Part shown: positions 52,429-64,000 of the stretch, in pieces
Numbering within the stretch: the first letter of the stretch is position 1
Layout of the letters: every line of letters starts with the position of its first letter
Source: Liolophura sinensis
Taxonomy: Eukaryota > Mollusca > Polyplacophora > Chitonida > Chitonidae
Reading direction: 5' to 3'
Assembly (NCBI RefSeq): GCF_032854445.1
Contig: NC_088307.1
Span: forward strand, 5,024,001-5,088,000
DNA length: 64,000 bases
Program-made: the position numbers and the translations under genes
The notes under the pieces: model-generated
What the model saw: the letters and a program-made list of their open reading frames with translations, nothing else
Told to the model about the DNA's origin: nothing
Databases searched by the model: none

Positions 52429-52661
52429 CTACATTTGGCTGTCATGATTTTCTGCATTCTTCTTTCGATTGTAGGACGCCGCGAAATTTCTCGGCAGTTG
52501 AGTGTCTTTGTCGTTTTCCCTGTCCTCATCTGACTGAGCATCGTCAACGTCCTTGTCTTCGTCTGTGGACAGTTCGATTACATCCATCATCCCGTCGTTT
52601 CCTCCTACATCCATTTCAGTCGAATTATCTCCCCTTTGGTCATCAACTGTTTCACTCAACA
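52429..52661 (-). CDS. DAXX: DAXX terminal exon with SUMO-interacting motif
   Basis: 233 nt, phase 1 in, stop TAG. Acidic tail with DVIELSTDED, a hydrophobic core flanked by Ser/Asp like the C-terminal SIM (IIVLSDSD) of human DAXX. Unlike human, about 40 more residues follow the SIM. Confidence 0.85.
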
Positions 52662-55600
52662 CTGGAAGTGAAAAAGAACAATTGTTAAATGTAATTCATA
52701 TTTCAATACTAAAGTGTCGACCAAAGAATCTTGATTTCACATTCTTAGCCCCTGTGTACTTTGTTACACGGGGGAAATCCATGCAGTTTTTGTTGTTGTT
52801 GTTGTTGTCTCTGTGGACACAATTATGAAACAGTGATAGCGTGATTAAACCTGCCGGAAAAGAATTATAATTTCAGGGAGGATATAATCTAAAAAATAAA
52901 AATCCAGATTGAACTTCTTTGTCTATAAATAGTAAGCAAATATTCTCATCCTTGTGAACACAGACGGTACTGTCTAGAAGTCATGTTGGCGGAAGGCTAC
53001 TTAACTCCAATATTGTTCATTACGCACGACACCCCAATATGTTAACCTTGAAAATCATTTTGCCCATTTACTCATAACGTTATAATATGGTGTTATTACG
53101 AAACCCTATTTGCAAAGTTTTGCTAAAGTCGCCAAATGAGAACATTTACTTCATGAATGAATGCTTGGAGTTGTGTGCATATACTGTGTCTTCTTGTGGA
53201 AGGGAGAGTCCATGCAACCAAAGTGTTGCCGCCATTGAAGCATCATGCCAGACACCAGTCCTGTTTTGCTCTAATCTCTCAGTGCAGTGCGCCAAGCGAG
53301 GCAGCATCAAATACCATTTTTAGCTGGACCCGGGTGTGATTTCGGGTCTCCGGACTTAGAACCGTTTGCTTTATGAGAATGCACTGATAAAATTTTGAGG
53401 CCTTATTTGTTGTTATTATTCTAAATATTTCTAACTAACTGCGATGTTCATTTGACAGCAAATAGCGAGATACGGTTTGAGAGACTGCGATGAACCAGTC
53501 AGACGCACGGCATCATGTTATACATCTGCTCAAATTAATACGATGCTATAATTGATATGCAATAATGTTTTACATAAACTCTATCGATCCGGTACCTTCA
53601 TAAAGTTTCGGTACACACACTTCTTCTTTCTCCTCATTGGTCGGTGAGCAGGACATCTCGCGTTTCTCTTTTCCTGACTGTTTAGCCAGTTCCTCAGACT
53701 CCTGTTCTCGCACGTATTTAAGGAACACCTATTAAAACGTCAGCATATATGTATTACTGATTGATTTAAAGGTGTTTTAGGTCATATTCAAGCACGTTTC
53801 ATTCAGCCGATCATAGTCAGGTCCTGGGATAGCGAAGCCATCTTCGACTTAAGTCAAACTTTCAAATCACTTTAAAATTGTTATTTCTTAAGTAACAATG
53901 TCAAAGTATTTCTTAACATCGTAAATTCTGGGTAAGTTATTGTAAAACAAATTCAGTTAAACAACCGGTAATGAACATAACAAGTTTAATGATTAAAATT
54001 TTGACTCAAGCTTAAGATCGCGTCGTGATTCCTTGGCCAGCTCCGTTAATTTATATTATTTGAATGTGACGAAACTTAGTTAACATGAGTTTGTTGAAGA
54101 CAGAGGGTCTTAAGCCATTGTACTAAGAGGTTACCATATTGCTACTTTTTAAGCATATATTTGATCACTTAAAATAAAACTCCAACTGAGGTACACTAAC
54201 AAGCCGTATTTCGTGTGACCAGTACCGGAGTCTCGAGTTCGAACCTTTTTATCAAGAACGTTTTAAAAGAATGTCAAAAGTGTTACTATTTTAAATTATA
54301 TTTACCATAACATGGAATCTAAAGAAAGTTTCACAAGGAGTAATTCAGAGTAGACAAACAATGGAGAAAATTGAGAAAATGAACATTTGTGAGCTTGAGG
54401 CGATCCGTAGGGAAAGGGGTGTCATTTGTGCCTCTGGAAGACAATAAGGCAGGTGATCGGTAAATTAATGTCAACATAGGTTGCCTAACATTTTTCACAA
54501 GTCACATGATACAGAAGGACTGTTTTTAACTTTGTCAACAAAAAAGTTCGAACTCGAAACTGCCCAATTTCTGTAGTGGTTTATATTGTGGGTAATTTCG
54601 AACCCACCTCATTCAGCTTCTTATCGCCCTCTAACCGATTTCTCTCCAGTTTGGCCTCTAGTTCAGGGTCTGTCAATGCTGGGTCATCATATAAGCTGAA
54701 ACATTGCCAACTCAGGTCATTTTTTTATCTATATCATTGATTAAATGAGGAAACCAGAGTACAGAGAACAAGAACCTGACAAACCCCAGTGAACATGCAA
54801 GCGTTGGATTGCCTCGCACAGTCTTATTCGTTACCAGCTGACAGGATGCACTGAGAGCAGAATTCGTTTATTTTATTGTAGCTTTACGCCGTACTCAAGA
54901 ATATTTCACGTATATAACCACCATTGTGGGTGAAAAAAGGTTTGAAGGAATCAGGATTGGTTGGTCCGGTGTCAGTATAATGTGACTGGTGGGGTGTCAT
55001 ATCTGTTGTATTTGGCATGATAGATCAGTAGAGGCTTGGCATCGCCGTGCCACAAGAGCATAGTATATGTACACACACCTAACCCCTAAAACTGTTTTAG
55101 GCAGAAATCAACGTGATTTATTTATTTATTCGATTGGTCTCTTTAAGTCGTACTCAAGAATATTTCATTTATACGATAGGTCATGGTGGCCAGAATTATG
55201 GTGGGAGGAAAGGATTGAGAAGTTATTATGAGCTGAGACGCTAACTTCACACAATCAGGCAATCGGCAGTTGAAGGTGATCAAAAAATCCTGCCGGCGTC
55301 GTTCCTTGAGAAGATATCCCACGTCCTGAAAGGTGGAGTTTGAAATATCCTTCACCCTCTCCGAACTAGAAAAGTTAAACAAAAAATAACATTTGAATAA
55401 TTCATGAAAGAAATAAGTCACACTTACCTGTATTCAGTTATATTTGTTTATTTATTTGATCGAGGTTTTACACTCCCCTGACAAATATTTATTTATTTAT
55501 TTATTTACTTATGTACTTATTTGCTTTATTGGTGTTCTATACCATATTCAAGAATAGTTGACTCGTTGCATATTTATGTATAGCTGTATATTTATTTATG

Positions 55601-55992: not shown

Positions 55993-58900
55993 GCAAACTT
56001 ACGACAAACAGAGATTTTCAGTCTTGTTAACTTTCATGATGATATCTGTGATGTCATGCAGCTCAGGAAAGATGTTTTTCTTGTTAATAAGTCGTCTGAT
56101 TTTCTTGTTTATCTCCGGGAATCTGGTACCTACAAGACGACACAAAGACCAGGTTGTAAGGCTAAAACAACAACGTACCAACGAAAGTTTTTGTAAATCT
56201 GGTACCTACAAGGCGACACAAAAAGCAGGGGAGCTAAAAAGTCTAAACCAAGGAAATGAAATGTTGATGGTCCAAAGGACGTGATTTCCTAGTGAGATCG
56301 GCCAGATGTGAAGATTCTTGGATTTATGTTTTTATTTGTTTACCGTTTCCCACCGCGTTGAAGAAGTTTTCACTCCTAAGACTGTGATATGGTCATCCTT
56401 GGAGATCTGATGAGAATGGCATGGTAATCCATTCTTCTTAGAGATCAGCATGGCTTTAAACAATAATCATATGGGTAAATCAGCTAATTTATTCCACAGA
56501 TTTTTTATGAGTTTAGGCAAATGACATCTTTGGTTGGTTGCAGTGGTGTTTTAGTAAGACAGAACCGTGTGATATATTTCCGATTTATTTATTTATTTAT
56601 TTGGTGTATTTGCCGTACTCAAGAATATTTCACTTATACGACGGCGGCCAGCATTACAGTGGGAAGAAACTGGATAAATACCGGGGGAAACGCACGACCA
56701 TCCGCAGGTTCCTAGGAGACCTTCCCACGCACAGCTGGAGAGGAAGCCAGCATGAGGTGGACTTGAACTCACAGCGACCGCATTAGTGAGAGGCGTCTGG
56801 GTCGTTACGCTGAGCTATCGCGCTAACCAACTAAGCCACGGAGGCCCCGATATATTTCCGAGTATGTTTTCTTGTTAATATATCAGCCTTGTTATGGTTT
56901 GTCGGTCTGACGTATTGGGTCTCGGCATGTTGGTCCTCGGCCGCTTGTGTTGGAAAACGACACAAAACAATTCCTGGGTGCATTAAAGATTTGCCAGCAT
57001 CATTACTTGTTTGGGAGCTCAAACTATAGTGATGATCATATCCGATATATGCAGTGCAAGACAAAAAAATAACTAAAAAGACCGTTACATACTGAAAATC
57101 TACGGAACAAAATGCATGAATACTTTAGAATGGAAGAATATATATTGTTAAAATATCGGGGATGGACATGAGTTCAAAGGCAAATGGGGTGGTAGATATA
57201 TGTACTAGGTATTCAAAGAACAAACAAATGAACAAAAATACGAGTGGATGTGAGAGTGAAAGTATACCTGCATATAAATGCTTATCTTCTGATTGGTGCA
57301 AGTACAAAAAAGTACAAAATCTCGCCTGGGCTAAAACCCTGGCGAGCACTATCAAAGTTTTCTCGCTTACCCTCAAATCTCAACCGCTTCTCGACGGGTC
57401 GACCTGTGGTTTTCCGCCTCCCCTTAAGCTCACATAACTTTTCCCAGACTTTGACGAACTTCCTCTCCAGTTTGTCCTCGCACATGTAACACGAGTTCTC
57501 ATCATCCAGCTCATCTAACGACATCTCCTGCTTTTTTAACCTTTCTATTATATTCCTCAATTCCTGTAAAACAGGCCACATTTCAGGAATTTCATATATA
57601 TCTCCAAGCGTGGACCCGAAAAGATGACCCGAATATCTGACGTGTATTACTACGAAGGACTGACATCATATTTAAGAAATAATGGACCTACAATTTACAC
57701 TGTTAATGTTATGGTATATATGAAATGCGATGACAACACAGCATTTGAGTAATTCTAGACCAGTTAGTGTAACAGATGTAAATTACAATTAAGATCACTG
57801 CATTTTTTTTCTACGTAGTTCTGCTTAAGCTTTGGTGCTAGAGGGCCTGGAATTCGCTACTATTTAAGGATTTGCCTGAACAGTTAGGATAAAAGCTTAA
57901 CTGACGTGTGACCATTTCTGACCATACTATTGTTGTATGATGTTTTCAGCTCGCATAACGACCTAATTAAATATGTGTAATCTTGCCAGCAAAAGCATCC
58001 AAAAAGAACAGTTAAAAAAACACAGAACAATTTTCTCATGCGGCTTTCGCCAACTAAACCCGCCAAGCGGGCACCGGTTGCTTAGTCTTCTCACTTCTAC
58101 CAAAGCATGGGCCTCTCACCAATGCGGTACCTGTGAGTTCAAGTCCAGCTCATGCTGGCTTCCTCTCCTACGTGGGAAGGTCTGTCAGCAACCTGCGGAT
58201 GGTCGTGGGTTTATAATACTGGCCGTCGTCATATAAGTGGAATATCGAGTACGGCGTAAAACACCAATCAAATAAATAAATAAATAAATCTATCAAAGCA
58301 AAATTGTATGTAGTTTCCACTCTGGCTGACAAAGATTTAATCCAAGTTCTGGACATCAGCACTGAGGGCAGTACTCCTACACGTCACGCATGTTGTAAGG
58401 ACATTCCAAACAGGGTTGTTTATTCCTTGTCAACTTATGTACATCCTCTGATGTACACGTGCATAGTCAGTGTCCCAAAACTGTTTGGCTCAAAGATCTC
58501 TAAGGTCAAAGGCTTTCAACACAAACTTAGGCTAGACTAGATTTTACCCGAAAACAACAGAAGTCACGAGTTGGATTCAAACCCCATTTATACCATTGCA
58601 GAGTTCAAGCGTCGATCAGCTGCAAAAACAAGGTGTTAACTGGTTTCTCCTACTTATCCAAAATGAAAAATGATGACTTACTGCCAGATAAATCTCCTGT
58701 TGTCTGATATGTTTCTCACTGACATCTGTTTTTTTATCATCCTGGTTTTCGCTGCAAGATGGTTTTATTTTCGCTTCCTTTTTAGATGCTGACCCGGGAT
58801 TAGACGAAGTATTTGCATCCTGAACACCATTCTGAACTTTGCTGCAAGAGGGTTTAATTTTCGCTTTCTGTTTAGATGTTGACCGTGGACTTGGCGAGGC

Positions 58901-61900
58901 ATTTGCACCATTAACAGTATGCTGATCTTTGCTGTAAGATGGTTTCACTTTCACTTTCTCCTTAGATGTTGAAGCTGGCTTTGACGAGGAATTTCTATAT
59001 TCCTTTTTATCATTAACAACTGAAGCAAAATTCTTTTCTTTCTGGATAAATGGTGTATTTTCTGTCGCCCTGTTAGGTGTGGAAGCCAGCTCCGAGGGAG
59101 GGTCTACACATTTAAAGATCGAGATTGGGGTAGACACCGATTCTACCTTCGCGGGCTGAAGATTTACACGTCTAGGGATCAACTTCGAAGTACTTGAACC
59201 AGCAGTAAATGGTGAAGAATGGCACTCACTGCCATCGTCCACGGTGCCCAAAGGACTGTCCGCATCTTTCTGAACAGGAAGTTGACCGTCTGTGGCATTA
59301 GCTCTTTTGGTGACTTCAGAACTTGATCCAGTCCCTGGAGTTGTGTTACGTTTTAAGACGATCCAGACCTTGTCAGACTCTGCCGCATCGCTGTCCAGTT
59401 TGGATTTTTTAGCAGGGCTGGCAGAAGGAGAACATGTGCTGTGCGTGTGGGGGGATTCACCGTTATTTTTAGAGACTAGCTCATAGTCTGGTGCATCTAC
59501 CGGTACATCCAATACTCCCTTGCCACGGTTCGCCTTTTTCTTCGATAACTCCCCTGAGTCTGAACCAGAGCTTTTTCCACGATCCCTCTTTCTACGTTTA
59601 TGTTTGACATTCATCTTATTTTTACCGTTTATCTCGGCGGAGTATTTGCCATGGGCCTTTAACTCTTGCACAAAGTCCATAATATGGACGTACACCCTCT
59701 GCTTGTCATTGCTGATAGCGGACCTCGTAGACTGGACTAGCTTTTTAAAGTCTGATGATTCTCTAAAACTTTCATCACACTTGTTGAATAGTTTTTCAGC
59801 ATATTTACAGAAATCATCTACTTCTTGGTGATCTGTTATTAAAGGCTTCAGGAAGACCAGGAACTGTAAAACAGGACAGACACGTATATATGAATCAAGG
59901 ATATATGCATGTCAAATGAAGCAAATGGTCATCGATGGGAATTGAGGACGTGCAATGCATCTTAAATATTTAGATTCTATGGTGGACTTGAAACGGTATA
60001 ATGATGTGATGGAAATTAATTTTGAACAATAAAACGCATTTTCGTGAAATGTATTGATGTAACGTTATGTGTAACTAAACAGCTAATCTAAAATTGTACT
60101 CGGGTACTCAGAATAAAATTTGATTAAGCTACTATACATTTTTTGTGAAATCTATTCTGTAACTAAACCCATAGAACGGCAAATCTAATATTGTACTCGG
60201 ATAATCAGAATAAATATTGATTGCCCTAAAATATATTTTTGTGAAATCTATTCAGCGCAAGTGGGAAGGTCTGTCTGCAGGCTGCGGATGGTCGTGGGTT
60301 TCTTCTGGGCTTTGCCCGGTTTCCTCCACCATAAGGCTGATCTCCGTCGTATAAGTGAAATATTCTTGAGTAGAGCATAAAACACAAATTAAATAAATAA
60401 ATAAAATCTATTCTGTAACTAAACCCATAAATCTATCATTGTACTCGGATACTCGGAGTAAAAACTAATTAGCCTACAATACATTTTGGTGAGATCTACT
60501 GCAATAATATTATATTTAACCAAAACCTAAAAACAAAAAAAAGCAAAAAAAAAAAAAACACTGATGATTTAATGAAAAATGCAATTCTGCAAACAGCAGA
60601 CCTTTTCAGTTGGTATTTAATGTGGTGCCCAAGAATATTTCTTATCTAATTCTGCCGAAGCCACGGTGCTAGGGGAGCGTTTATATGAACAGTTGGAGTA
60701 AAACACAAACAGGCAAATTGACAAAAGGCCGTTACGTGTAACCATTTGTCAGTTGCCCCATTGTCGTTGCTGCTCTGGTTTTACTCTCTATGCTGTACAT
60801 CAATCACACTGTCGTCGCTGCTCTGTTTTACTCTCCATGTTGTAGTCTTTATACATAATGAGGAAACCGGAACTATTGCTGGCTGAAAAAATAATAAAGC
60901 ATACGGAAAAGAAGATATTTCTCCTTCAACAGATACTTTAGGCGGGGGAGGGGTTCCTCGTCCTTTGTCCCCTCAGAAAAATATCCTTAATTTAGAATTT
61001 GTGATTTATGAAGGCCTATTTATTTGTGTTTAATGTACTCATGAATTTAAACTTAAAAAAAAAACCCGCAGTAAATCAGAACTATTCACAAAGTACTTGA
61101 CATCTCTGTTGACTCAAATATCTAACCGAACTGCTGAGAGCCTGATTTGACCACCCTTATTAATGTTTGGTGGCTTTGCCCATATACCTTATCACAAAAA
61201 AGGGGTCTGTCCGTAGGAATTTATGTATTAATAAAGTATCTCAATGGGTGTTTAAAAAGCATAACCTTTCACTTTCTGATGTTGCACCACCGCGATATCG
61301 CAGTTCAAAGTAAGCAAAATCACGCACAATGAGACCATCGACAGCACCGCCGTGATGTTAATTATATCCAATCAGGCACTAGTTATTTCTACAACCACAG
61401 GACGTGTCTGTTTCAGCTCTGCTCAGCGGAACCGTTTTTTATTTTAACCATCAATGGGTGGGATATGAATGACAGACACGGCATGGTTTTTCCGATTGGT
61501 CGAACATGACGTCTCCCATGACCTTGTAAAAAATTCCTTTCTAGAAATTGATTTGTAAAGTTACCAAGATCATCAGAAAGAAAATGCCTGTGAAAAAATT
61601 GACTGTTTATATTTGTTTTCACCTATCTTCTTAAACCCCTCAGGTTATGTATGTATGTATGTATGGTTTAACGTGGTACTGAACTTTTTTTTCCAGTCAT
61701 ATGAGGGGTTATTAGATGTGTGTACATACACCTTGTCTTCTTGTGACAGGGTGAGTCCATGCAGTCAAACTGCTGCCGCCAATGAAGTATCATGCTGAAG
61801 ACACCAGACATGACACCCTACCCAGTCAAATTATAGTGACACCGGGCATCCAGTTCTGTTTCCTTGGTCTCACCCCTCCGCGTTGTGGGCCAAGCGAGGC

Positions 61901-63108
61901 AGCAACAAGTATCATTTTTACAGTCTTTGGTACAATCCGACCCGGAATTGGCCTTGGGCCTCCCGAATTCGAGGCGAAATCAGGTTATGTTATACGTTGT
62001 CTTTCCCTTGAAAGAAATTCACATGAGAAAAAGGGTTTTCATTTTGAATTAGAGGAGGAGACCAGAGCTCAAAAGTAGGCAGCGGAATTGAAACTGATTC
62101 TTTCACAGTTACTATTGGTTTTAACGGTGAGAATATCCAAAGTAGAAGGCTAAAGGGATAGCTATAGACAGCTGTCTGCACCCTGCTACTTGCCCTTTTT
62201 TGAACACACTGTGAGAAAAAAATACTTCTATTAATATACCGATAAAAACTTGAAAGTAGGAGCGGATTGGTCAGGTTACGATCAAAGAACACATTTTAAG
62301 GACTGCAATACGAATTCAATAGCGACAAGAACAATGTTTAGTCAACATGGCCAAGGAGGGTCCCTAAGAATAAGTGATTTCAAACTCGTACAATATGATA
62401 AATACTTAGTGCACTTACTGACAGCAGAATTTCCCGTTGACTATCACCGTTCTCGCTGACTGCTGAATTTTGACCATCAACGACTGACATAAAATCCTGT
62501 TCTTTACTACATGATGGATTATCTGTACTTTCCTTATAAGACGTTGATGTCGGTTCCGGATGGACATCTGCGCATTTGACGGCTGACACCGAATCTACCT
62601 TCACGGGCTGAAGATCTACAAGTCTAAGGGCCAACGTTAAATTACTTAAATCTGCAGCTTGTGGTGAAGAATGCCCTTTACCGTCATCTGCCGCAACAAT
62701 AGCACTGTCAGCCTCTTTCCCAGCGTTATTCTCACTGATAATGCCATCATTAGGTAAATTTATCCGAACATCCGATCCATCCTTGTTGCGATTCACCTGT
62801 TCCTTTGGTATTTCACTTGAGTCTGCACCAGAGTTTCTGTCGCCATGTCTCTTCTTAGACTTACTTCTGTCGTCTCTCTCGACGGAATGTTTTACATGGG
62901 CCTGTAACTCGGATACAAGGTGCGCGATGTAACAATGTATATTCTTCTTGCCATTGCCGATAGCTAACCTCGTAGACTGGATTAGCTGTTTAAAGTCTGA
63001 TGACTTTTTATAACTCTCATCACAGCTGTGGAATATTTCTTCTAGATATTTAATGAGTTCATTATATTCCTGGCGATCTGGTATAAATGGCCTCAAGAAG
63101 ACCAGGAA
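52429..63108 (-). CDS. DAXX: DAXX ortholog, histone H3.3 chaperone (5' end not resolved)
   Basis: DAXX deposits H3.3-H4 with ATRX at heterochromatin and binds SUMOylated partners. Coding exons in transcript order: 62419-63108, 58682-59863, 57371-57563, 56003-56129, 55246-55365, 54608-54695, 53596-53728, 52429-52661 (stop TAG at 52431-52429). All phases match, giving 2,766 nt (921 residues plus stop) without the missing start. Order: DHB bundle copy B plus linker, DHB copy A plus linker, histone-binding domain (KKQEMSLDELDDENSCYMCE ... LINKK ... FQDVGYLLKERRRQDFLI ... YDDPALTDPELEAKLERNR), then an acidic tail with a SUMO-interacting motif (DVIELSTDED). Tyr and Glu in SCYMCE match human Tyr222 and Glu225, which discriminate H3.3. 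The acidic tail is much shorter than in human. The first exon may lie beyond 63,108 or outside the window. Confidence 0.9.
53150..53400 (-). mobile_element. tRNA-like SINE, family 4
   Basis: Shares TGTCTTCTTGTG, GAGTCCATGCA, TGCCGCCA and GCCAAGCGAGGCAGCA with 61641-61990. In the last DAXX intron. Confidence 0.6.
53596..53728 (-). CDS. DAXX: DAXX exon after the histone-binding domain
   Basis: 133 nt, phase 0 in and 1 out. VFLKYVREQESEELAKQ continues the last helix (human QVISKYAMLQDKSEE), then a charged region. Confidence 0.85.
53820..54039. mobile_element. TIR element, CCCTGG..GATCAC family, copy C
   Basis: Ends GGTCCTGGGAT and ATTCCTTGGCC with inner inverted words GACTTAAGTCAAACTTTCA / TTTGACTCAAGCTTAAG. 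Diverged copy of 31966 and 45401. Confidence 0.6.
54608..54695 (-). CDS. DAXX: DAXX exon, end of histone-binding domain
   Basis: 88 nt, phase 2 in and 0 out. YDDPALTDPELEAKLERNRL corresponds to VDPALSDPVLARRLRENRSL in human. Confidence 0.92.
55114..55212 (-). mobile_element. SINE family 1 fragment next to a DAXX exon
   Basis: GATTTATTTATTTATTCGAT to GGCCAGAATTATGGTGGGAG, ending 33 bp from the exon donor at 55245. Further tail fragments occur at 54868-54938, 55445-55560 and 55776-55862. Confidence 0.7.
55246..55365 (-). CDS. DAXX: DAXX exon, histone-binding domain
   Basis: 120 nt, phase 2 in and 2 out. STFQDVGYLLKERRRQDFLI corresponds to DAFRDVGIRLQERRHLDLIY; then TFNCRLPDCV for NFGCHLTDD. 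Donor is GTTAGC. Confidence 0.9.
55938..55991. repeat. (AT)n microsatellite beside a DAXX splice donor
   Basis: About 27 AT dinucleotides ending 11 bp from the exon boundary at 56003. Confidence 0.95.
56003..56129 (-). CDS. DAXX: DAXX exon, histone-binding domain
   Basis: 127 nt, phase 1 in and 2 out. GTRFPEINKKIRRLINKKN corresponds to GTRYPEVNRRIERLINKPG in human, followed by FPELHDITDIIMKVNKTE. Confidence 0.93.
56584..56848 (-). mobile_element. SINE family 1, full-length, with perfect target-site duplication
   Basis: 265 bp from a TTTATTTATTTATTTA tail to a GGAGGCCCC head, flanked by GATATATTTCCGA at 56571-56583 and 56849-56861. The best reference copy here: A box GCTTAGTTGGTTAGCG, B box GAGTTCAAGTCC. 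Confidence 0.92.
57371..57563 (-). CDS. DAXX: DAXX exon, start of histone-binding domain
   Basis: 193 nt, phase 0 in and 1 out. ELRNIIERLKKQEMSLDEL and DDENSCYMCEDKLERKFVKV align with IRRLQEKELDLSELDDPDS and YLQEARLKRKLIRL of human DAXX. The Tyr and Glu three residues apart that select H3.3 are both present. Then LCELKGRR and a GRPVEKRLRFEG segment. Confidence 0.93.
58106..58290 (+). mobile_element. SINE family 1, partial head and deleted centre
   Basis: GGGCCTCTCACCAATGCGG, GAGTTCAAGTCCAGCTCATG, then a shortened central domain and an ACCAATCAAATAAATAAATA tail. In the intron between DHB copy A and the histone-binding domain. Confidence 0.8.
58682..59863 (-). CDS. DAXX: DAXX exon, DHB copy A
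   Basis: 1,182 nt (394 codons), phase 0-0: acceptor TTTTACAG, donor GTAAGTCA. It begins with a second four-helix bundle (FLVFLKPLITDHQEVDDF ... SSDFKKLVQSTRSAI ... FVQELKAHGKYSAE), about 53% identical to copy B over 77 residues by hand count. A long basic and Ser/Thr-rich linker (KHKRRKRDRGKSSGSDSGE, nuclear-localisation-like) follows. It has three ~30-residue repeats of KxKPSCSK type near its end, and closes QQEIYLA. Confidence 0.88.
60043..60500. repeat. About 3 x 96-bp tandem repeat interrupted by a SINE
   Basis: Units share TTGTGAAATCTATTCTGTAA, CTAATCTAAAATTGTACTCG and CAGAATAAA. The third unit is split by the SINE at 60254-60403. Confidence 0.75.
60254..60403 (+). mobile_element. SINE family 1, truncated, with target-site duplication
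   Basis: Flanked by AAATCTATTC at 60244-60253 and 60404-60413; 5' truncated at GTGGGAAGGTCTG. Confidence 0.88.
61641..61990 (-). mobile_element. tRNA-like SINE, family 4, long copy
   Basis: Tail end GTTTAACGTGGTACTGAA at the left; the body is shared with 53150-53400 and 37470-37700. In the intron between the two DHB exons. Confidence 0.6.
62419..63108 (-). CDS. DAXX: DAXX exon, DHB copy B
   Basis: 690 nt, phase 0-0: acceptor TGTGTTGCAG, donor GTAAGTGC. The first ~77 residues are the N-terminal four-helix bundle (FLVFLRPFIPDRQEYNEL ... SSDFKQLIQSTRLAI ... LVSELQAHVKHSVE), corresponding to human DAXX around FLELCKMQTADHPE ... YINELCTVLKAHS, the surface that binds ATRX. A charged Ser-rich linker follows, with one NPSCSKEQ motif, ending REILLS. 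Homologous from end to end with 58682-59863. Confidence 0.85.
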
Positions 63109-63138
63109 CTGCAACACAGAAGATACATATACAAAAAT

Positions 63139-63350
63139 GAGTTCAAGTCCAGTTCATGCGGGCTTCCTCTCTGGCCGCAGGTGGGACGGTCTTCCTGCAA
63201 TCTGTGGATAGTTGTGGGTTTCCCCCGGAATCTGTCCCGGGGGAAACAGCCCGGGCCAATCCCACGACCATCCCCATGTTGCTGCAAAACCTTCCCACAT
63301 ACGACCGGAGAGGAAGCCAGCATGAACTGTGCTTGAATTCACAGCGAGTA
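63139..63350. mobile_element. Head-to-head inverted pair of SINE fragments
   Basis: 63139-63238 reads as a plus-oriented family 1 segment (GAGTTCAAGTCCAGTTCATG to GGGTTTCCCCCGG). 63239-63350 is the same segment in minus orientation (CGGGCCAATCCCACGACCA to ATGAACTGTGCTTGAATTCA). Arms of ~100 bp meet at TCCCGGGGGA. It lies ~30 bp upstream of the DHB copy B acceptor. Confidence 0.8.
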
Positions 63351-64000
63351 ACGAGAATGAGACGGAACACGAAGAACTAAAAGATTTGACCACCGAGAAC
63401 AGTGCAGTTAAATATTCAAATTGTAAAGTGGAATATTTTGGTATATACGTGTAAAGGGAGTTTATTTTTACCCAAAACTGCATTTTTGTGAAAGCTCTTG
63501 ATCTATAATATTTGTTGATACCATAACGGTGTCAGACGGTCGTTTGAGTGTCGTTGTCGGCTTATTGTGACAATCCCCAAAAGGCCCTATGTGATGTGAG
63601 GAGGAGGCTTGTCCAAGCGAGATGAGGACTGATTACGTAGTGCTCACTTTCACTGCATGCCTATTTATTTCACGTGGAAAATTTCTCTTTACATGTCGAA
63701 CCCGTTCAAATATTCGGTATACAGTGACTGCTTAAATCCACCAAAGAGTAGATACATCAGTCTCAGTAGCCTAAGTCATCTTTAAACAGAAACACGGCCA
63801 GTTAAACTTTTAAATCGACCGAATCGATACAAGGCCTGCTATGTGTTGCACGGAGTATGTTGAGTGGAACAAAATCGATGTGCTCGATTTAAAAGTTTAA
63901 ACAGCTGAATTACAGTTAAAACAGTTGGTTTACCAATGCTGGCGCCAACGTGTCGACACTTTGGTTGACTTGGGGAATCAGTGCATACCAAATATGTGGA
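63351..64000. other. Upstream of DHB copy B; first DAXX exon not found
   Basis: I looked for a minus-strand exon ending in phase 0. The only weak candidate is ATG CAG TTT TGG at ~63482-63471 before GTAAAA, too short to trust. Otherwise featureless. Confidence 0.4.

What the first reader, a model, noticed from the sequence alone, without database searches (positions are those of the whole stretch)
58682..63108. Tandem duplication of the exon encoding the DAXX N-terminal helical bundle
Two exons (62419-63108 and 58682-59863) both start FLVFL(K/R)P, both encode the DHB four-helix bundle (~53% identity over 77 residues by hand count), both end in (Q/R)EI(Y/L)L, and both are phase 0-0. Either one or both could be spliced in without breaking the frame. 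Known DAXX proteins carry one DHB. A double-DHB DAXX could bind two ATRX-type ligands, or the copies could be mutually exclusive exons with different partners. The low identity argues against an assembly duplicate.
Basis: partly seen in the sequence, partly recalled or inferred. Interest (0 to 1): 0.8.

Follow-up and report, generated by a model that had tools for sequence, protein, structure and literature searches.

The report
Twin docking exons in chiton DAXX
A mollusc gene for the histone chaperone DAXX carries two different copies of the exon for its partner-docking domain: one copy keeps the surface that grips ATRX and the other looks remade, so this DAXX may have two docking heads or switch between them.

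Summary
On the minus strand, exons 63108-62419 (A) and 59863-58682 (B) both encode a DAXX helical bundle (DHB) plus linker. They are 53% identical over the bundle, both phase 0-0, with GT-AG sites. The sequence fits one DAXX gene: a coding first exon (MSAVLLVE) lies 743-766 bases past the window's right edge, and six exons (57563-52429) follow. A-only, B-only and A+B all stay in frame (535, 699, 929 aa).

A paralogous DAXX gene about 145 kb away has one DHB exon. AlphaFold models of A and of B each match DAXX DHB structures first in the PDB, though sequence-only searches are weak. New result: at 11 ligand-groove positions B matches human DAXX 7/11, A 2/11, although both match 12/58 elsewhere. 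The ATRX gene found in this genome keeps a recognisable DAXX-binding motif. A is not decaying as an exon (omega 0.51, 95% 0.34-0.81).

Best reading: B is the ATRX-type bundle, A a diverged second bundle. Sequence alone cannot say whether both are spliced together or alternatively. "Two ATRX ligands" is not favoured. Known domain, new arrangement. The genome is probably the chiton Liolophura sinensis.

The parts
62419..63108 (-). Exon A: diverged DHB (first ~72 residues) plus linker, phase 0-0, 690 nt
   Evidence: Open frame, ttgcag|TTC acceptor and TCA|gtaagt donor; AlphaFold model pLDDT 81, ranks 1-12 of 17 Foldseek hits are DAXX DHB, best VIA Z 9.0
58682..59863 (-). Exon B: DHB with human-like ATRX groove plus longer linker, phase 0-0, 1182 nt
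   Evidence: Open frame, ttacag|TTC acceptor and GCA|gtaagt donor; AlphaFold model pLDDT 75, ranks 1-12 of 13 Foldseek hits are DAXX DHB, best VIA Z 9.1
57371..57563 (-). Shared exon 3: start of the histone-binding region (ELRNIIERLKK...)
   Evidence: 70% identical to the paralog exon
56003..56129 (-). Shared exon 4 (TRFPEINKKIRRLINKK...)
55246..55365 (-). Shared exon 5 (TFQDVGYLLKERRRQDF...); donor gttagc is unusual
54608..54695 (-). Shared exon 6, end of the histone-binding domain
   Evidence: PF20920 match at C13:5078599-5078688
53596..53728 (-). Shared exon 7
52429..52661 (-). Last coding exon with stop; contains a SIM-like stretch DVIELSTDEDKD
   Evidence: this exon was not found in the paralog; the SIM label is from recall
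63138..63341 (-). Two SINE-like fragments (label by eye) in inverted order, 76% complementary, forming a strong hairpin that ends 29 nt before exon A's acceptor; possible regulator of A inclusion
   Evidence: Inverted repeat I1; RNA fold of 63095-63350 -135.5 kcal/mol, z -9.2

Best explanation
One DAXX gene in a mollusc (very probably the chiton Liolophura sinensis) has a tandemly duplicated DHB exon. Shown from sequence: both exons are open and spliceable, sit between one upstream coding exon and one set of downstream histone-binding exons, and stay in frame alone or together. Supported by prediction: both encode the DHB fold. Shown by comparison: B keeps most of the groove residues that bind ATRX in human DAXX, and the ATRX gene found here keeps the matching helix; A has replaced most groove residues. 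Inferred: B is the ATRX-recruiting head, and A is a second head that binds another short helical ligand, or none. Most likely default splicing joins A and B into a 929-aa protein with two unlike bundles in front of one histone-binding domain, with A optionally skipped. Alternative use of A or B would switch the chaperone between ATRX-independent and ATRX-dependent forms.
For: One gene: complete in-frame model MSAVLLVE|A|B|E3-E8. Exon 1 is conserved with the paralog (79% over 87 nt); no copy of its coding part was found in the A-B intron, and the frames directly upstream of A and B hold no ATG. DAXX identity: PF20920 E 1.5e-24; PDB DAXX 4h9s E 4.3e-39. DHB fold of each copy. Groove: B 7/11 against 12/58 elsewhere (Fisher p 0.007); A 2/11 against 12/58; paralog 4/11 against 13/58, with positions from PMC5662737, PMC5636753 and PMC5636754. 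ATRX: ADD exon at C8:30865958, helicase at 30883374 and, between them on the same strand, an exon reading ENKNAKKSLLAELE against human ENRIAKKMLLEEIK (human letters recalled). A is maintained: 690 nt open, A-branch omega 0.51 (0.34-0.81), neutral chance of no stop 0.3-1.6%. Default joint inclusion: A-B intron 2555 nt, identical gtaagt donors, lengths divisible by three.
Against: No transcript evidence at all. Sequence searches with single copies do not find DAXX DHB in the PDB; a three-sequence profile reaches it only at E 0.79, below a designed helical protein at 1.8e-4; Pfam Daxx PF03344 gives B 13.9 bits, under its 27.6 cut-off, and A nothing. Foldseek E-values are all above 0.1 (0.21-3.3), two of A's twelve DAXX rows have rmsd over 10, VIA's own note says Z under about 13 can be a common arrangement for helical bundles, and the two models share a two-row alignment, so they are not independent. 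Within the DHB alone the A-branch omega (0.86, 0.38-3.29) cannot exclude relaxed constraint. The direct A-versus-B groove contrast is only suggestive (7/11 against 2/11, p 0.08). The paralog also carries the F87-to-L change, and human F87L weakens ATRX binding, so groove rules may differ in this species; the chiton ATRX motif has L where human has I1280. A 26-nt piece of the paralog's exon-1 leader matches the A-B intron near 60622 (42 of 2000 shuffles as good; coding part does not match).
Confidence: 0.6

Rival explanations
1. A and B are strictly mutually exclusive exons: every transcript carries one, giving an ATRX-binding (B) and an ATRX-blind (A) DAXX.
For: Tandem homologous exons of equal phase with similar acceptors. 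The main known mechanism, competing RNA pairings, has candidates: a SINE-like hairpin 29 nt before A's acceptor, whose distal arm (63241-63341) can also pair with copies in the A-B intron (60256-60311) and the B-E3 intron (58131-58212) (repeats I1-I3 and I5, 73-89% complementary). The mechanism list was seen in passages of PMC6071210.
Against: The short-intron mechanism does not fit (2555 nt between A and B), no U12-type site is seen by eye in these introns, and the NMD route cannot work because both lengths are multiples of three. Lengths differ (690 against 1182). Copies of the same repeat recur in these introns and elsewhere in the window, so inverted pairs may be chance.
Confidence: 0.25
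2. A is a dying exon: a duplicate that is skipped or tolerated and under no selection.
For: A has the longest branch (0.265 substitutions per nucleotide site against 0.194 for B and 0.132 for the paralog); omega in its DHB is not below 1 with confidence. At the 51 DHB codons where B and the paralog are identical, A differs at 21: 18 replacement, 3 silent.
Against: The frame is intact over 230 codons, the splice sites are intact, linker omega is 0.40 (0.23-0.70), whole-exon A-branch omega is below 1 in 99.8% of 1000 bootstraps, and neutral simulations keep the frame free of stops in only 0.3-1.6% of runs before counting frameshifts.
Confidence: 0.12
3. B (or A) belongs to a separate gene with its own start, so no protein is affected by the doubling.
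For: The upstream untranslated exon was not located; promoters cannot be judged from sequence here. The paralog's exon-1 leader has a marginal 26-nt match in the A-B intron (42 of 2000 shuffles as good, one of four comparisons).
Against: The gene's own exon 1 scores at chance in the A-B and B-E3 introns, the coding part of either exon 1 scores at chance in the A-B intron, the frames directly upstream of A and B hold no ATG, no histone-binding exon was found between A and B, and one exon 1 upstream of A matches the paralog's.
Confidence: 0.05

Closest known systems
Human DAXX DHB/4HB bound to ATRX (PDB 5GRQ, 5Y18, 5Y6O)
   Same: Same fold by prediction for A and for B; B keeps H81, E83, V84, F87, Y124, V125 and I127 equivalents; the chiton ATRX motif keeps E1268, N1269, A1272, K1273, L1276, L1277 and E1279 equivalents
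   Different: Human DAXX, in the review passages seen, has one such bundle (aa 55-144), for which partners compete; here there are two DHB exons in tandem and A's groove is changed
The paralogous DAXX gene of the same genome (C13:4938658-4948814, + strand)
   Same: Same exon order and first coding exon (MSALLLDE); its bundle is 75% identical to B's and 55-56% to A's
   Different: One DHB exon only; groove intermediate (4/11); its last exon was not found
Tandem homologous exon pairs (mutually exclusive exon clusters)
   Same: Adjacent homologous exons of equal phase, in-frame whichever is used
   Different: Unequal lengths, long spacer, no transcript evidence of exclusion

Membership tests
DAXX | Histone-binding domain | tested here: met
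   PF20920 86.1 bits, cut-off 27; PDB DAXX 4h9s E 4.3e-39
DAXX | N-terminal DHB fold, exon A | tested here: met
   By predicted fold: pLDDT 81; ranks 1-12 of 17 Foldseek hits are DAXX DHB (E 0.33-3.3); 5grq_B Z 9.0, rmsd 1.6 over 70, best unrelated Z 4.5. Single-sequence searches did not find it
DAXX | N-terminal DHB fold, exon B | tested here: met
   By predicted fold: pLDDT 75; ranks 1-12 of 13 are DAXX DHB (E 0.21-2.2); 5grq_B Z 9.1, rmsd 1.7 over 70, best unrelated Z 5.6. Single-sequence PDB search did not find it
DAXX | Pfam Daxx N-terminal model PF03344 at its cut-off | tested here: not met
   B 13.9 bits against 27.6, A no match. The model found nothing in the whole genome or in the 14 control genomes, although the paralog also has a DAXX histone-binding domain, so it seems insensitive here
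DAXX | C-terminal SUMO-interacting motif | tested here: inconclusive
   Last exon reads DVIELSTDEDKD, SIM-like by eye and recall only
DAXX | N-terminal SUMO-interacting motif | tested here: inconclusive
   Only eight residues (MSAVLLVE) precede the DHB in the model; none recognised by eye
ATRX-type DHB ligand groove | Conserved contact residues | tested here: inconclusive
   B 7/11, paralog 4/11, A 2/11; binding itself not tested
Mutually exclusive exon cluster | One and only one exon per transcript | not testable with these tools
   No RNA data available
Mutually exclusive exon cluster | Homologous adjacent exons of equal phase | tested here: met

The most novel reading that the evidence does not exclude
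A two-headed DAXX: B holds ATRX while A, with a rebuilt groove, holds a second helical partner at the same time. The partner competition proposed for single-DHB DAXX would then not apply, and the H3.3 chaperone could be bridged to two pathways; inclusion of A would be tuned by a SINE-like RNA hairpin at its acceptor.
Probability: 0.3. Interest if true: 0.75.

Novelty: new variant of a known kind. Interest (0 to 1): 0.5.

Why it matters
In human DAXX the overlapping DHB surface means that ATRX, RASSF1C, p53 and MDM2 are thought to bind one at a time (review PMC6735914, passages). A natural DAXX with one canonical and one rebuilt DHB would separate ATRX-dependent from ATRX-independent chaperone work by evolution rather than by point mutants, and gives a ready test of how DHB specificity is set. 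For a specialist it is a notable variant, not a new kind of system.

Tried and rejected
Single-sequence PDB searches with A and B: no DAXX hit; with a three-sequence profile four rows came up, three of them designed or repeat helical proteins by name, and DAXX 5y6o ranked third at E 0.79. Pfam Daxx model on the genome: nothing, and nothing in the controls. Blast of the human ATRX motif against the genome: nothing; the motif was found only by scanning the ATRX region with patterns of my own. The tighter pattern gave no hit; the looser one gave four, of which one fits by eye. It lies at the expected place in gene order, but no statistic backs it.

Assembly duplicate considered: the copy at C13:5130500-5142702 differs from the window locus by 55 substitutions, 49 one-base indels (45 in homopolymers of two or more, where 48% of bases lie) and 6 longer indels over about 10.2 kb. 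That looks like sequencing error more than evolution, so its broken A' and B' frames were not used as evidence of decay. L012 shows no megablast match over 300 bases to the window, so it is not a simple head-to-tail repeat starting at 5090003. Its left edge was not mapped. A true recent duplication is not excluded.

Age of A: by synonymous distance A is the outgroup to B and the paralog (0.96 of 1000 bootstraps over all shared codons, 0.95 linker, 0.73 DHB), implying that exon doubling preceded gene doubling and that the paralog lost A. But B and the paralog are identical at 56 of 57 nt over codons 44-62, which looks like gene conversion and would push the same way. No relic of A in the paralog's 421-nt intron (score 22, shuffles up to 28). 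Left open. Groove-specific divergence between A and B (3/11 identical against 35/61) is not significant (p 0.10).

First exon between A and B: the gene's own exon 1 scores at chance. The paralog's exon 1 gave 25, equal to the best of 200 shuffles; looked at again, this is a 26-nt leader piece near 60622 reached by 42 of 2000 shuffles, without the coding part.

No search of other molluscs was possible (no animal genome apart from G000). Papers: DAXX searches listed no title or abstract start reporting a DAXX with two DHBs; most listed papers were not opened, and subscription papers are not covered.

Species: G000 has 609,464,459 bases and the paper 609,495,693, both with 632 pieces; C13 here is 30.1 Mb while the paper's scaffold_13 is 19.5 Mb, so numbering differs or the identification is off.

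Full report
What is there. The window is C13:5024001-5088000 of a 609,464,459-base genome in 632 contigs. Eight tandem mollusc-type haemocyanin matches, the size and the contig count fit the published chiton assembly of 609.5 Mb and 632 scaffolds (PMC11068029, passages), later re-identified as Liolophura sinensis (PMC12441733, whole text). The identification is an inference; the base totals differ by 31 kb and the numbering of large scaffolds differs.

Gene model. On the minus strand the gene reads: coding exon 1 MSAVLLVE (C13:5088766-5088743, i.e. 743-766 bases past the window's base 64000, preceded by an acceptor-like tcttgtag, so a further 5' exon probably exists), A 63108-62419, B 59863-58682, E3 57563-57371, E4 56129-56003, E5 55365-55246, E6 54695-54608, E7 53728-53596, E8 52661-52429 with stop. 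A+B gives 929 aa, A-only 535, B-only 699; the lengths printed include the stop. The common part is DAXX (PF20920 1.5e-24; PDB DAXX 4.3e-39).

The paralog. A second DAXX gene on the + strand (C13:4938658-4948814; seven coding exons found, last one not) has the same exon plan with a single DHB exon, about 145 kb from B. The two DHB searches of the genome find five places: A, B, the paralog, and the A' and B' of a near-identical copy 52.7 kb away (B' as two overlapping rows). Three further weak rows (E 0.87; 0.52 and 5.7) contain stops and were dropped.

Are A and B DHBs? Sequence alone is weak. Structure prediction is clearer: with two rows of alignment and no templates, each model's best PDB matches are DAXX DHB entries, ranks 1-12 of 17 listed hits for A and 1-12 of 13 for B. 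Foldseek E-values are 0.21-3.3, probabilities 0.51-1.00; two of A's rows have rmsd over 10. VIA Z to 5grq_B is 9.0 and 9.1 at rmsd 1.6 and 1.7 over 70 residues, with the best unrelated rows at 4.5 and 5.6; the tool warns that Z under about 13 can be ordinary for helical bundles. Position before the histone-binding domain agrees. The two models share an alignment and the predictor may have seen human DAXX.

Ligand groove. From three structure papers (PMC5662737 passages; PMC5636753 and PMC5636754, first of two parts each) I took 11 contact positions. Human residue, then B/paralog/A: H81 H/L/R; E83 E/E/E; V84 V/C/Y; F87 F/L/L; L88 C/V/I; K122 R/R/N; Y124 Y/Y/H; V125 V/V/C; I127 I/I/I; N128 M/M/A; C131 V/V/V. 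Identity to human is B 7/11, paralog 4/11, A 2/11, against 12/58, 13/58 and 12/58 elsewhere in residues 70-138. B's groove is conserved above its background (p 0.007); A's is not; B against A directly is p 0.08. Other contacts named in those papers (A121, R91, the basic patch R111/R115/R119) were not scored. In human DAXX Y124A abolishes binding and F87L costs about 38-fold. The ATRX gene found here has a matching motif exon near C8:30875265 between ADD and helicase, with L at the I1280 position.

Is A alive? A's exon has stayed open through about 0.27 substitutions per site; neutral simulation keeps it free of stops in 0.3-1.6% of runs, frameshifts not counted; A-branch omega is 0.51 (0.34-0.81) over the shared codons, 0.40 (0.23-0.70) in the linker, and 0.86 (0.38-3.29) in the DHB. 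So the exon is maintained, while its bundle changes fast: 18 replacement against 3 silent A-only changes at 51 codons where B and the paralog agree. That could be adaptation or relaxed constraint in the bundle.

Splicing. Donors of A and B are identical (gtaagt), acceptors look good by eye, the A-B intron is 2555 nt, and both lengths divide by three. Of the mechanisms for mutual exclusion listed in PMC6071210 (passages), spacing, spliceosome mismatch and NMD do not fit; competing RNA pairing remains. Two inverted SINE-like fragments (76% complementary) fold into a hairpin (-135.5 kcal/mol, z -9.2) ending 29 nt before A's acceptor, and the distal arm can also pair with copies in the next two introns. 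Its effect is unknown. The default expectation is that both exons are included, with A possibly skipped.

Verdict. Observation right, one-gene reading well supported, 'two ATRX ligands' unlikely. I favour a DAXX with one ATRX-type bundle and one rebuilt bundle. It is a new arrangement of a known domain; what is missing is a transcript.

Noticed in passing
C13:5130500-5142702 (L013, L014): A near-identical copy of this locus 52.7 kb away, differing in large part by one-base homopolymer indels; likely a leftover haplotype copy (the paper reports 14X HiFi coverage).
   Followed up: partly
window 58738-59007: Three tandem 90-nt units inside exon B's linker, the others 77% and 67% identical to the reference unit, in frame; no such family listed in A.
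   Followed up: no
window 59678-59734 and L010 5733-5789 (codons 44-62 of the DHB exons): B and the paralog share 56 of 57 nt here against 84 of 108 in codons 1-36, suggesting a gene conversion tract between genes about 145 kb apart.
   Followed up: partly
G000 C8, near 30875265 (L021): Exon that appears to encode a DAXX-binding motif in the one ATRX gene found, recognisable from human to mollusc.
   Followed up: partly
G000 C8:37880506-37891931: Eight haemocyanin-domain matches in tandem, useful for placing the genome in Mollusca.
   Followed up: no
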